DNA from: Streptomyces liliifuscus
Lineage (GTDB): Bacteria > Actinomycetota > Actinomycetes > Streptomycetales > Streptomycetaceae
Assembly (NCBI RefSeq): GCF_016598615.1
Contig: NZ_CP066831.1
Location: 8,618,001-8,682,000, forward strand
Reading direction: 5' to 3'
Length of the DNA: 64,000 nt
Positions 28,900-44,797 of this stretch are shown piece by piece. A program made the position numbers and the translations under genes. Position 1 is the stretch's first letter. Each line of letters opens with the position of its first letter. Under the pieces are notes generated by a model. The model saw only the letters and a list, made by a program, of their open reading frames with translations, did no database searches and was not told the DNA's origin.

Positions 28900-29757
28900 A
28901 TGCGCTTCCGAGTACTCGGTCCTGTCTGCCTCGAACCCCGCACACCGTCCGCGCCCAAACAGAGGGCGGTGCTCGCGACCCTGCTGGTGCGTGCCGGAGC
29001 CGTGGTGCCCGCCGGTGCCCTCTTCGACGAACTGTGGCCGGACGGGCCGCCCCGCACCGCCGCGACGACCTTGCAGGTGTACGTGTCCCATCTGCGCAAG
29101 GCCCTCACCCAAGGGGGCCACGGCCGGGGCCCGTTGGAGACCCGGCCGCCCGGATATCTGCTCCGGGTCGAGCCCGGCGAACTGGACCTGCGGCGGTTCG
29201 ACGAACTGTTCTCGCGCGGCCGAGCCGCCTTCGGGGCCTGCGACTTCGCGGCTGCCTCGGAGGTGTTGACCGAAGCCCTCGCACTGTGGAGCGGGCCCGC
29301 GCTGTCCGGCGTCCCGCAGGGTGAGGTGCTGACGGCGGCGGCCGTACGGCTCGACGAACTGCGGTTCGAGGCACTGGAGTTGCGGATCGAGGCGGACCTG
29401 CGGCTCGGCCGCCATCACGAGGTGACGGGCGAGCTGATGGAGCTGGCCCGTGCCCATCCGCTGCGCGAGCAACTGCACTGCCAGTTGATGGAGGCGCTGC
29501 GCCGGGCGGGCCGTACCACGGACGCGCTGCGCGCCTACCGTGCCGTTCACCGGTCGCTGCACGACGAGTTGGGCGTCACACCCGGGCCGGCCCTGATGCG
29601 GTTGCACGCGCGTGTGCTCAGCGCGCACGCGTCCGAGCCGGTCACCGCCGCTGTCGTCGCCGCCCCTATCGGCCGGCTCCGCGCAGGTTCCAGGCGAGCC
29701 AGCGGCGGACCGCTCCCGGATGTCCGGGCGAGCCGTGCACATCGTCGATCATCTTGA
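28900..29757 (+). CDS. SARP-family pathway activator (first)
   Basis: 285-aa Streptomyces antibiotic regulatory protein. N-terminal OmpR-like winged helix (about 1-95; LEPRTPSAPKQRAVLATLLVRAGAVV...TTLQVYVSHLRKAL) and bacterial transcriptional activator (BTAD) domain (about 100-245; RFDELFSRGRAAF...LHCQLMEALRRAGRTTDALRAYR). Such proteins activate biosynthetic genes by binding directly repeated heptamers. ATG follows GAGGAG. The 3' end overlaps the convergent hydrolase gene by 92 bp, and its last 30 residues are low-complexity Arg/Ala/Ser-rich sequence. Confidence 0.87.
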   Translation: MRFRVLGPVCLEPRTPSAPKQRAVLATLLVRAGAVVPAGALFDELWPDGPPRTAATTLQVYVSHLRKALTQGGHGRGPLETRPPGYLLRVEPGELDLRRFDELFSRGRAAFGACDFAAASEVLTEALALWSGPALSGVPQGEVLTAAAVRLDELRFEALELRIEADLRLGRHHEVTGELMELARAHPLREQLHCQLMEALRRAGRTTDALRAYRAVHRSLHDELGVTPGPALMRLHARVLSAHASEPVTAAVVAAPIGRLRAGSRRASGGPLPDVRASRAHRRSS

Positions 29758-30826
29758 CGCGTACGTCGGGCACGGCGGTGCGCAGGAGGTCCGCGTCGCT
29801 GGGCGGGATGATCTCGTCCCGGGTGCTCGTCACACAGCGGACCGCCGCGCTGACCGAACGCAGCTGGTCCTCGGTGAGGGCGAACTCCTGAAGCTGTGAC
29901 CGGAGTTGGACCTCGTCCTGGGTGCCGGTCAGCCGGCGCAGGGTGTCCTTGGTGATGCCCGGGACCCGCTCCCACCATGCCGCGTCGGTGAAGAAACCGG
30001 CGACCGGCGGGCCGACCGTCAGGACCCGGCGAACGCGCTGGTCCTCGGCGGCGGCCCGCAACGCCATGTGCCCGCCGAAGCTGAGGAACAGGAGCGTGGC
30101 GGCGTCGGTGCGGGCCCGGGGCGACAGGTGGTCCAGGAGCCAGGGGATCAGCCGCCAGGAGTCGGCCGTGTAGCGCTGGGTGTTCTCGCCCACGCCGGGG
30201 AGTTCGGCGACCACGGCCGCGTAACCGAGTTTGGTGAGCCGGGGCAGCAGGGGCGCCCACTGCTCCTTGACGCTGACGATGCCGCCCATCATGAGGAGAA
30301 GGGGGCGGTGGGAGCGGCGGCGGTGCGTGTCCAGGCCCGCCGCCCATGCGTGCAACGTGCCGTCCGGGTGCGGGAGTTCGAGGCGTTCGATGCCTCCGTG
30401 CGTCCGCCGCCAGGTGTCGAAGGTGGCGACGGCCGTCTGCTGTGCGTGGCGTCGGGGGGCGTCGTACGGGTAGGGGAATCGGGCCAGGGTGTAGTGGCGG
30501 CAGGCCGCCAACAGGCGTCCGCGGTCGACCAGTTCGTCGCCGCGCAGCCGCCAGACCCGGGTCCAGGAGTCGGCCGCGTCGGGGGCGTCGGTGCCGATAC
30601 GGGCGAGGATGCGGGCCGTTCCGCGGGCGCTCATGCCCTGGTTGCGGGCGTGGAGGCGGGCGAATTCCTTCAGCTCGCTCAGGTGGTCGAGTGGGGCTGC
30701 CCGGAGAACACCCTGCTGTTCGAGTGGTCGGTCGTGGTGGTCGTGGTGGTCGACTTGTTCGAGGTGGTCCAGCTGGTCGCGGTGGGCGACAGGTGTGACG
30801 TGGTCGGTGGGGCGGCGGTCGGGCAT
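29666..30826 (-). CDS. Alpha/beta hydrolase (FrsA/esterase-like)
   Basis: 386-aa hydrolase, last gene of the biosynthetic operon. The core is MMGGIVSVKEQW (oxyanion region), LFLSFGGHMALRAA (nucleophile elbow; the Ser is followed by FGG, and the first residue of the usual GxSxG is Phe), and RDEIIPPSDAD plus the final DVHGSPGHPG as probable Asp/His. It resembles the DUF1100/FrsA-type hydrolases found in polyketide clusters, where they hydrolyse or cyclise thioesters; a role in product release or transacylation is inferred. The start ATG at 30826 follows GGAAGGACATCGC. A His/Asp-rich stretch near the N-terminus (DHHDHHD) comes from repetitive DNA. Confidence 0.78.
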   Translation of the reverse strand: MPDRRPTDHVTPVAHRDQLDHLEQVDHHDHHDRPLEQQGVLRAAPLDHLSELKEFARLHARNQGMSARGTARILARIGTDAPDAADSWTRVWRLRGDELVDRGRLLAACRHYTLARFPYPYDAPRRHAQQTAVATFDTWRRTHGGIERLELPHPDGTLHAWAAGLDTHRRRSHRPLLLMMGGIVSVKEQWAPLLPRLTKLGYAAVVAELPGVGENTQRYTADSWRLIPWLLDHLSPRARTDAATLLFLSFGGHMALRAAAEDQRVRRVLTVGPPVAGFFTDAAWWERVPGITKDTLRRLTGTQDEVQLRSQLQEFALTEDQLRSVSAAVRCVTSTRDEIIPPSDADLLRTAVPDVRVKMIDDVHGSPGHPGAVRRWLAWNLRGAGR

Positions 30827-30848
30827 GCGATGTCCTTCCGGCGAGGGT

Positions 30849-43113: not shown

Positions 43114-43916
43114 ACCGTTCGTCGGCCGCCGTAGAGGCGGACCAGGGGTGCCACCTCGTCCAGCAGCCGCCCCTCGTGCGTCCGCAGGAAGAAGTGGCCG
43201 CCCGGCAGGACCCGCACCTCGCAGCCGCGCGCCGCGTACCGGCGCCAGGCGGCCACCTCGGGCACCCGGACGAGGGAGTCGTCCGCCCCGGCGTACAGAT
43301 GGAGCGGTACGCGGACGGGCCCGCCGGCCGGGCCCGCGCTCGCGCACAGCGTCAGGTCGTCCCGCACCACGGGCAGCAGCGCCCGCAGCCACTCCGGGTG
43401 CCCGAGGAGGGCCTCGGGCAGCCCGCCGAGTGCGACCAGCGCACGGGCCAGCTCGGAATCGGAGTCAGAGTCAGAGCCGGAGCCGGAGCCGGAGTCGGCA
43501 CCAGAGCTTGCGTCGGAGTCCATGCGCGGCGGCGGCAGATGCGGGGCGCGGTACGCGGCGAGCAGGGCCGCGCGTGGAAGGGGTGCACCCCGCTCCTGAC
43601 GTCGTCGGATCAGGGCGTACGCGATGAGGGCGCCCATGCTGTGCCCGTACACGAGATGGGGTGAGGCCAGCACCTCGTCGAGTTCCTCGTCCAACTCCTC
43701 CACCAGCGAGGCGAGTTCGGTGAAGCGGGGCTCACCGGACCGCCCCTCGCGGCCCGGCAGCCGTACCGGCAGGACGTCCACCGAGGCGCCCCGCGCGTCG
43801 AGCTCGCGCTGCCAGTGGGCGTACGTCGAGGCCCCGCCGCCCGCGAAGGGGAAGCACAACAGCCGTACCGGCGCGTGAGGTTGCGGTGTGCGTGCCAGGT
43901 ACTCCGTCGTCGTCAT
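43095..43916 (-). CDS. Type II thioesterase
   Basis: 273-aa TEII/GrsT-like editing thioesterase. LLCFPFAGGGASTYAHW (oxyanion region), GHSMGALIAYAL with nucleophile Ser93, YAGADDSLV (Asp) and VLPGGHFFL (His) complete the triad. It likely removes misacylated chains from the ACP or PKS. Residues about 134-160 hold a Ser/Asp/Gly low-complexity insert encoded by repeats (GAGTCA/GAGCCG) around 43457-43498. ATG at 43916 overlaps the SARP stop (ATGA). Confidence 0.87.
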   Translation of the reverse strand: MTTTEYLARTPQPHAPVRLLCFPFAGGGASTYAHWQRELDARGASVDVLPVRLPGREGRSGEPRFTELASLVEELDEELDEVLASPHLVYGHSMGALIAYALIRRRQERGAPLPRAALLAAYRAPHLPPPRMDSDASSGADSGSGSGSDSDSDSELARALVALGGLPEALLGHPEWLRALLPVVRDDLTLCASAGPAGGPVRVPLHLYAGADDSLVRVPEVAAWRRYAARGCEVRVLPGGHFFLRTHEGRLLDEVAPLVRLYGGRRTVHAAAS

Positions 43917-44797
43917 GGCGCCACCACTTGGGCCCCCGTCGCGGCGCCGCGCCACCCCGATGCCCGGTCGGGGTGCCCCTGCGCGGCGCCGCTCCACCCC
44001 CCGTCAGAGTGGTCGCGGATGGCGTCCAGGGACGTGTCGCCCCGCAGGATCGCCTCGTGCAACTGCCTTACACGTATGGATGGTTCGAGCCCCAGCTCGT
44101 CCGACAGGACGCGGCGCAGACCCCGGAACAGTTCCAGTGACTGCCAGGAGCGGCCGCTGCGGTGCAGGGCGAGCATCAACTGCGCGTGGAGGCTCTCGTG
44201 CAGGGGGTAGCGGGAGGCCAGGGCGGTCAGTTCACCGAGGAGCGCGCGGTGGCGGCCCAGCCGGAGCTCCGCGCCGAAGCGCTCCTCCAGGGCGGTCAGA
44301 CGAAGCTCCTCCAGACGCAGAACCTCCGCACGCAGTACGGGTCCAGGCGAGACATCGGCCAGTGCGGGCCCCCGCCACAGCCGCAGCGCGCCCACCAGGA
44401 GCTCCGAACCCTCGGCGTCGGCGCCCGCCTCCAGCGCGGCACGACCGGCCGAGGCGAGCCGTTCGAAACGGGAGACGTCCATGGCGTCCGGCGGGGCGTC
44501 CAGGCGGTAACCGACGGGCACCCGCCGCAGCACGTCCTTCGGACCGAGCACGTGATCGGGACCGAGCGCCGAGCCGATCATTCGGCGCAGCTGTTTCACG
44601 TACGTGTGCAGCGTGGCCTCGGCCGAGCGTGGCGGGCGGTCTCCCCACAACTCGTCGACCAGAGCCGAAACCCCTACCGGATTCCCGCGGTTGAGGGCCA
44701 GCAGAGCCAGGACCTGCCGTGGCTTCGGTGCACTCGGTACCACTGACGCCGGCCCCACCCGTGCGTTCAGCGGTCCGAGCACGGCGATCTCGATCAC
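43913..44797 (-). CDS. SARP-family pathway activator (second)
   Basis: 294-aa SARP with N-terminal winged helix (VLALLALNRGNPVGVSALVDELWGDRPPRSAEATLHTYVKQLRRMIG) and BTAD domain (RFERLASAGRAALEAGADAE...SLHAQLMLALHRSGRSWQSLELFR). Paralogue of the first SARP at the other edge of the cluster, so the two probably bracket the pathway genes. It is cotranscribed with, and translationally coupled to, the thioesterase gene. ATG start at 44797; 232-bp gap to the divergent histidine kinase gene. Confidence 0.87.
   Translation of the reverse strand: MIEIAVLGPLNARVGPASVVPSAPKPRQVLALLALNRGNPVGVSALVDELWGDRPPRSAEATLHTYVKQLRRMIGSALGPDHVLGPKDVLRRVPVGYRLDAPPDAMDVSRFERLASAGRAALEAGADAEGSELLVGALRLWRGPALADVSPGPVLRAEVLRLEELRLTALEERFGAELRLGRHRALLGELTALASRYPLHESLHAQLMLALHRSGRSWQSLELFRGLRRVLSDELGLEPSIRVRQLHEAILRGDTSLDAIRDHSDGGWSGAAQGHPDRASGWRGAATGAQVVAP

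What the first reader, a model, noticed from the sequence alone, without database searches (positions are those of the whole stretch)
28900..44797. Compact biosynthetic cluster inserted next to a conserved proteasome-Tat-helY block
Genes: FAAL, two ACAD-like enzymes, ACP, KS-AT-ACP PKS, FabH-like enzyme, hydrolase, FAD monooxygenase, type II thioesterase, half-MFS and two SARPs. The FAAL + two dehydrogenases + ACP set resembles the dienoyl-chain machinery of ramoplanin-type lipopeptides, but here it feeds a lone PKS module and a FabH-like transferase with no NRPS in the window. I know of no described cluster with this set. From memory, in S. coelicolor the helY orthologue lies close to the cvn9 genes, so the 28.4-57.4 kb segment looks like an accessory insertion. 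Product inferred: an unsaturated beta-ketoacyl derivative, perhaps transferred to an acceptor or cyclised and then hydroxylated.
Basis: partly seen in the sequence, partly recalled or inferred. Interest (0 to 1): 0.8.

Follow-up and report, generated by a model that had tools for sequence, protein, structure and literature searches.

The report
Acyl-tetronate cluster split across chromosome
This Streptomyces gene cluster looks built to make a fatty-acid-derived tetronate antibiotic, but three genes its relatives need (glycerate loading and acetylation) are missing from the cluster, and the genome's only copies, of a foreign type, sit 6.5 million bases away in a housekeeping region, so one pathway appears to be run from two distant loci.

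Summary
The genes are as described. The interpretation changes. The "FabH-like enzyme" and "hydrolase" are relatives of the tetronate enzymes AbyA1 and AbyA5, so with FAAL, two ACADs, ACP and KS-AT-ACP this is an unsaturated 3-acyl-tetronate cluster. About 22 of 392 other sampled Streptomyces carry close relatives; intact versions also hold A2 (FkbH, glycerate loader), A3 (glyceryl-ACP) and A4 (acetyltransferase), three of them at the same helY locus. In the window all three are cleanly gone. The genome's only FkbH, and its only close A4 homologue, lie 6.5 Mb away as a tight A2-A3-A4 operon inserted between two core genes; seven other Streptomyces have the empty site. This cassette belongs phylogenetically to modular-PKS (kijanimicin-type) tetronate clusters, not to the acyl-tetronate clade. 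Two sister genomes (one S. phaeochromogenes) share both changes. Residues conserved in the families are essentially all retained at both loci and dN/dS is below 1. Of 73 A1 places surveyed, only the window genome and its sister have FkbH megabases away. Best reading: a working tetronate pathway split in two by replacement in trans with a foreign cassette. Product and in-trans function are inferred, not shown. No such split was found in the papers searched.

The parts
28900..29757 (+). SARP regulator 1 (Trans_reg_C + BTAD)
   Evidence: Pfam BTAD E 1e-46; conserved at this place in relatives
29666..30826 (-). A5: AbyA5/Agg5-type alpha/beta hydrolase (acetate eliminase); start ATG 30826 with RBS, 17 bp after the A1 stop
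   Evidence: AbyA5 (5no5/4ywf) E 2e-89; all 56 residues conserved across 28 relatives kept; junction sequence
30849..31913 (-). A1: AbyA1/RkD-type KAS-III that condenses beta-ketoacyl-ACP with glyceryl-ACP (tetronate ring former)
   Evidence: 5by7 E 1e-120; Cys135, PPQLSGR and GNNGN region conserved in 12 tetronate homologues; dN/dS 0.10 against sister
31910..35137 (-). PKS module KS-AT-ACP, malonyl-type AT (HAFH), no KR: one extension to a beta-ketoacyl-ACP (likely GTG start 35137)
   Evidence: Pfam; motifs DTACSSS, GHSVGE, HAFHS, LGLDSV
35134..35400 (-). free-standing fatty-acyl ACP
   Evidence: ORF and translation; homologous in the FAAL-type clusters
35517..37196 (-). ACAD2, acyl-ACP dehydrogenase-like desaturase
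   Evidence: Pfam; PDB relatives include prolyl-ACP dehydrogenases
37197..38942 (-). ACAD1, acyl-ACP dehydrogenase-like desaturase
   Evidence: Pfam, PDB
38939..40924 (-). FAAL, fatty acyl-AMP ligase
   Evidence: AMP-binding E 8e-60; FAAL subfamily models
40874..40914 (.). scar where FkbH (A2) sits in intact clusters: 42 bp here versus 1.9 kb in G122
   Evidence: blastn of window against G122 and tblastn with G122/G159 FkbH, no remnant
30678..30857 (.). scar where A3 and A4 sit in intact clusters: 0.18 kb here versus 1.8 kb in G122
40925..41081 (.). divergent FAAL/FMO promoter region with 11-bp spaced direct repeats (GCGGCCTTAACGCGGCCTT; CAAGGCCGCTACAAG), SARP-box-like
   Evidence: sequence and comparison with G128, G122, G159
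40962..42317 (+). FAD-dependent monooxygenase (tailoring); likely true start 41082
   Evidence: FAD_binding_3 E 3e-40; weak similarity to ChlE3, PyrE3
42304..43113 (+). half-length MFS-like membrane protein, fast evolving but also half-length in relatives
   Evidence: MFS_1 positions 2-180/347
43095..43997 (-). type II thioesterase (editing)
   Evidence: Pfam Thioesterase E 1.5e-31
43913..44797 (-). SARP regulator 2
   Evidence: Pfam BTAD; dN/dS 0.07

Best explanation
The window holds most of a pathway to an unsaturated 3-acyl-tetronate, and the rest is 6.5 Mb away. FAAL loads a fatty acid on the free ACP, two ACADs desaturate it (probably to a dienoyl chain), and KS-AT-ACP adds one malonyl unit to give a beta-ketoacyl-ACP. 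At 2.15 Mb an FkbH (A2) loads glycerate from 1,3-bisphosphoglycerate on a second ACP (A3). A1 in the window joins the two into a 5-hydroxymethyl-3-acyl-tetronate. Distal A4 acetylates the hydroxymethyl group and A5 in the window eliminates acetate to give a 5-methylene tetronate; the FAD enzyme tailors it. The ancestor had A2, A3 and A4 inside the cluster; in this lineage they were deleted and functionally replaced by a foreign A2-A3-A4 cassette from a modular-PKS tetronate cluster, inserted between core genes. Shown: gene content, loss, insertion, foreign origin, uniqueness of the genes in the genome (A3 was not searched separately), purifying selection. Inferred: enzyme activities, in-trans cooperation, product.
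For: A1 and A5 identity. Full A1-A5 + FAAL/ACAD sets in relatives, three at the same helY locus. Clean loss of A2, A3, A4. One FkbH, one A5, one strong A4 match and one strong A1 match in the genome: A1+A5 in the window, A2-A3-A4 together at 2.15 Mb (A4 Pfam 2-oxoacid_dh). Empty site between the metallophosphoesterase and ATP-grasp genes in G122, G159, G164, G020, G172, G011, G014. Distal FkbH falls with G164 and the kijanimicin-type clade, away from G122/G159/S.PB5 (SH-aLRT 97-98). Same double change in G128 and S. phaeochromogenes NRRL B-1248. Of 73 A1 places, 64 have FkbH within 20 kb; only G000 and G128 are megabases apart. dN/dS 0.10-0.39 for the cluster enzymes, 0.21-0.28 for A2-A4; conserved residues kept at both loci, with 3 exceptions in A4, 2 in FAAL and 1 in ACAD2. 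A3 and A4 homologues are interchangeable between chlorothricin and tetrocarcin pathways in vivo (PMC3625739); Agg4/Agg5 accept another tetronate, RK-682 (PMC4979870).
Against: No expression, mutant or product data. An FkbH-ACP pair without any A1 exists (G069, L122), so A2-A3 could serve something else. No shared regulatory element found between the two loci. A1-like enzymes without a long FkbH exist in one genome (G355), so A1 may be able to use another partner. The distal A4 has three substitutions at otherwise conserved positions.
Confidence: 0.72

Rival explanations
1. The window cluster has changed its acceptor: after losing glycerate loading, A1 condenses or releases the beta-ketoacyl chain with another nucleophile (a hydroxy- or amino-acyl thioester, a second beta-ketoacyl unit giving an alpha-pyrone, or water), and A5 does a different hydrolysis. 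The distal operon serves something else.
For: No A2/A3/A4 in the cluster; A5 is the fastest-evolving core enzyme, dN/dS 0.39; A1-like enzymes without a long FkbH occur in G355; an orphan FkbH-ACP exists in G069.
Against: A1 keeps every one of the 99 residues conserved among tetronate A1s and A5 all 56; A1 dN/dS 0.10; the missing three genes, and the only FkbH in the genome, turn up as a set in the same lineage.
Confidence: 0.12
2. The cluster is decaying: it lost three essential genes, is silent, and the distal cassette is a separate relic.
For: Three essential genes missing from the cluster; half-MFS with dN/dS 0.55.
Against: Every enzyme frame is open in G000 and G128, all enzymes are under purifying selection after the losses, conserved residues are kept; the deletions are clean and do not damage neighbours; three genomes keep both loci.
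Confidence: 0.1
3. A lipopeptide-like or other beta-ketoacyl product unrelated to tetronates, made by the listed genes alone.
For: FAAL-ACAD-ACAD-ACP set as in rotihibin and ramoplanin (PMC8552735).
Against: No NRPS; A1/A5 belong to tetronate families; this FAAL/ACAD set sits beside A1-A5 in most of the related clusters read.
Confidence: 0.04

Closest known systems
RK-682 pathway (rk genes, Streptomyces)
   Same: 3-acyl-tetronate made with RkE (FkbH) glyceryl-ACP and RkD (A1) (PMC5819245, PMC4979870); the FAAL-ACP-PKS-A1-FkbH-A3 clusters seen here (L064, L065 etc.) have that logic
   Different: The window adds two ACADs, A5 and an FAD enzyme, and lacks FkbH and the glyceryl ACP in the cluster. 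The rk cluster sequence itself was not available for comparison.
Agglomerin and abyssomicin/quartromicin glycerate-utilisation operon (A1-A5)
   Same: A1 and A5 in the window, A2-A3-A4 at 2.15 Mb: all five present in the genome
   Different: In described clusters FkbH, ACP and FabH lie together (PMC4979870); here they lie 6.5 Mb apart and belong to two different clades
Rotihibin rthHIJK / ramoplanin fatty-acid loading set
   Same: FAAL + two ACADs + ACP for an unsaturated fatty acyl starter (PMC8552735)
   Different: Feeds a KS-AT-ACP and tetronate former instead of an NRPS; no direct sequence comparison was made
   Same: Same gene order from helY (to cvnA where read), same FAAL/ACAD/ACP/PKS/A1/A5/SARP genes
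   Different: They carry FkbH beside FAAL and A3-A4 between A1 and A5 inside the cluster

Membership tests
3-acyl-tetronate pathways (glycerate-utilisation genes) | FabH-like tetronate former (A1/RkD) | tested here: met
3-acyl-tetronate pathways (glycerate-utilisation genes) | FkbH glyceryl transferase and dedicated ACP inside the cluster | tested here: not met
   absent, no remnant
3-acyl-tetronate pathways (glycerate-utilisation genes) | FkbH glyceryl transferase and dedicated ACP encoded in the genome | tested here: met
   single FkbH (670-aa open frame) followed by an ACP at 2.15 Mb
3-acyl-tetronate pathways (glycerate-utilisation genes) | Enzyme set making a beta-ketoacyl-ACP | tested here: met
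   FAAL, ACP, KS-AT-ACP with intact motifs
3-acyl-tetronate pathways (glycerate-utilisation genes) | A4/A5 acetylation-elimination pair (for 5-methylene tetronates) | tested here: met
   A5 in window, A4 at 2.15 Mb; split between loci
3-acyl-tetronate pathways (glycerate-utilisation genes) | Tetronate product | not testable with these tools
   needs metabolomics
Ramoplanin/rotihibin-type lipopeptide clusters | FAAL + ACADs + ACP | tested here: met
   PMC8552735
Ramoplanin/rotihibin-type lipopeptide clusters | NRPS with starter C domain | tested here: not met
   none among the genes scanned in 25.5-59.3 kb
CorB-type alpha-pyrone synthases | KAS-III of the pyrone-forming clade | tested here: not met
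   CorB match only E 2e-5 against 1e-120 for 5by7

The most novel reading that the evidence does not exclude
After losing glycerate loading, the window cluster has re-tasked its A1 and A5 to a non-glycerate acceptor and makes a new non-tetronate scaffold from a dienoyl beta-ketoacyl chain, while the distal A2-A3-A4 cassette runs an independent glyceryl/acetyl pathway.
Probability: 0.1. Interest if true: 0.75.

Novelty: new variant of a known kind. Interest (0 to 1): 0.56.

Why it matters
Tetronate clusters are described with glycerate loading, carrier and ring former side by side. Here the essential loading genes appear to have been swapped for a foreign set in a housekeeping region 6.5 Mb away, so one antibiotic-type pathway would run from two loci and two lineages of enzymes. 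If true, it is a natural test of whether tetronate parts from different families are interchangeable, an example of how clusters come apart, and a warning that mining tools that look for FkbH inside a cluster will miss such tetronates. It also shows that a little-described unsaturated acyl-tetronate family is common: about 22 of 392 other sampled Streptomyces have the close form, named members include S. scabiei 87.22, and a cyanobacterial MAG contig has the same gene set.

Tried and rejected
Ramoplanin-like lipopeptide: no NRPS. Alpha-pyrone synthase: KAS-III matches the AbyA1-like family, not CorB. FkbH, A3 or A4 remnants in the window: none. Hidden second FkbH, A4 or A5 in the genome: none of comparable strength. 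A shared SARP site between the two loci: an apparent match AGAGCGG upstream of the distal FkbH overlaps the ancestral metallophosphoesterase upstream region seen in relatives and was dropped. Recent truncation of the MFS: rejected, half-length in relatives. The RK-682 paper was not held and no MIBiG collection was at hand. No named ramoplanin ACAD was at hand for a direct comparison. A literature search with tetronate plus fatty acyl-AMP ligase gave no paper.
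Full report
What was checked. The KS-AT-ACP has intact KS, malonyl-type AT and ACP motifs and no KR. The free ACP is 35134-35400 and the likely PKS start 35137. A5 most likely starts at ATG 30826, 17 bp after the A1 stop.

Identity of the two key enzymes. The FabH-like protein matches PDB 5by7 (3-oxoacyl-ACP synthase III, E 1e-120) far better than any other KAS-III (next E 1e-30; CorB 2e-5). 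The hydrolase matches AbyA5 of the abyssomicin pathway (E 2e-89). In tetronate pathways A1 (RkD) joins a beta-ketoacyl thioester to glyceryl-ACP made by FkbH (A2) on ACP A3; A4 acetylates and A5 eliminates acetate to give the exocyclic methylene (PMC5819245, PMC4979870, PMC7489565). [quoted passage not shown] I take 5by7 to be AbyA1 or a close equivalent; the entry name itself only says 3-oxoacyl-ACP synthase III, so this is inference.

What relatives carry. In 393 Streptomyces genomes 66 have an A1 match at E <= 1e-50, about 23 (with the window's own) at 72% identity or more. Their loci show FkbH-FAAL-ACAD1-ACAD2-ACP-PKS-A1-A3-A4-(A5) in nearly constant order; where FkbH lay beyond the stretch read, the genome search placed it 8-14 kb from A1. 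The named collection adds S. scabiei 87.22, S. niveus, S. hygroscopicus, Kitasatospora, Streptacidiphilus and a cyanobacterial MAG (Xenococcaceae, L215) with the same gene set including the FAD enzyme. So the family is a widespread unsaturated acyl-tetronate type. FAAL plus two ACADs plus ACP matches the rotihibin/ramoplanin starter set (PMC8552735), which supports an unsaturated acyl chain.

The gap in the window. Aligned to G122, the window has 42 bp where FkbH should be (40873-40915 against 37763-39688) and 181 bp where A3-A4 should be (30677-30858 against 26297-28090), with no remnants. Sister G128 and S. phaeochromogenes NRRL B-1248 (L152) likewise lack A3 and A4 between A1 and A5.

Where the genes are. 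The genome (11.35 Mb, 2 contigs) has one FkbH, at C1:2154 kb, followed by an ACP and an AbyA4-like 2-oxoacid-dehydrogenase acyltransferase with the DHRxxDG motif. A5 occurs once; A1 and A4 have one strong match each, the others being weak. A3 was not searched separately. G128 and S. phaeochromogenes also have a single FkbH, 94% identical to this one. At 2.15 Mb seven other Streptomyces, including G122, G159 and G164, have the phosphopantetheinyl transferase-metallophosphoesterase pair directly divergent from the ATP-grasp gene with no insert. The cassette is thus a three-gene insertion in a core region. Its nearest relatives are A2-A3-A4 (72, 80, 76%) of an ordinary A1-A5 operon beside modular PKS genes in G164. 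In a tree of 71 FkbH proteins it sits with G164 in the clade of Actinomadura kijaniata and other modular-PKS operons, apart from the acyl-tetronate FkbHs of G122, G159 and S.PB5.

How unusual. Of 73 A1 places, 64 have FkbH within 20 kb. Of the other nine, three lie on fragmentary contigs, two are 40 and 70 kb away on the same contig (G286, G175), two belong to one genome with diverged A1s and no long FkbH (G355), and the last two, 6.5 and 7.1 Mb apart, are the window genome and its sister.

Is it functional? Between the window genome and G128, dN/dS is 0.10 (A1), 0.12 (ACP), 0.16 (ACADs), 0.25 (PKS), 0.29 (FAAL), 0.39 (A5) and 0.28, 0.26, 0.21 for distal A2, A3, A4. Residues conserved across relatives are all kept in A1, A5, ACAD1, the FAD enzyme, FkbH and A3, with one exception in ACAD2, two in FAAL and three in A4. 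This argues against decay. It does not prove cooperation. Published exchange of A3 and A4 homologues between tetronate pathways (PMC3625739) makes cooperation of mixed parts plausible.

The junction. helY and cvnA are linked in 12 of 20 sampled Streptomyces, most of them nearly adjacent and four with the allophanate hydrolase / urea carboxylase / DUF1989 block between them; none of the 12 has the tetronate cluster there. So the segment is composite: a rarer tetronate part plus a commoner urea-metabolism part.

Order of events and coupling are inferred. Whether the foreign cassette came first and made the local genes dispensable, or the reverse, cannot be told from three genomes that share both changes. 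Regulation: the FAAL/FMO intergenic region has 11-bp spaced repeats kept in G128 and partly in G122, consistent with SARP control; nothing similar was found at the distal operon.

No such split was found in the papers searched, which is a limited library.

Noticed in passing
L215 (MAG Xenococcaceae cyanobacterium), 0.3-19.9 kb: A cyanobacterial MAG contig carries the same FAAL-ACAD1-ACAD2-ACP-PKS-A1-FkbH-A3-A4-FAD enzyme-A5-TE set, its FkbH grouping with Streptomyces sp. BK340 (L192): an apparent cross-phylum transfer or misbinned contig.
   Followed up: partly
L077 (G355) 4275-5285 and 14697-15713: Two diverged A1-like KAS-III genes (44-49%) near PKS modules in a genome without any long FkbH; the partner substrate is unknown.
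   Followed up: no
L122 (G069): A tetronate-type FkbH (62% to the distal one) with a neighbouring ACP but no A1 match (E <= 1e-50) in the genome, so FkbH-ACP pairs exist outside tetronate formation.
   Followed up: no
L223 (S. coacervatus): FAAL-ACAD-ACAD-ACP-PKS-FAD enzyme-A1 cluster with no FkbH within the 10 kb read downstream; possible further split or variant.
   Followed up: no
window 49623-56630: Allophanate hydrolase, urea carboxylase fusion and DUF1989 block between the tetronate cluster and cvnA; found alone between helY and cvnA in several Streptomyces.
   Followed up: partly
L173 (S. scabiei 87.22, NC_013929.1 around 6.97 Mb): The potato-scab species carries an intact acyl-tetronate cluster of this type; no product was looked up for it.
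   Followed up: no
G175 contig C78 (L076): Acyl-tetronate cluster with A3, A4 and A5 but with FkbH 70 kb away on the same contig: a milder separation.
   Followed up: no
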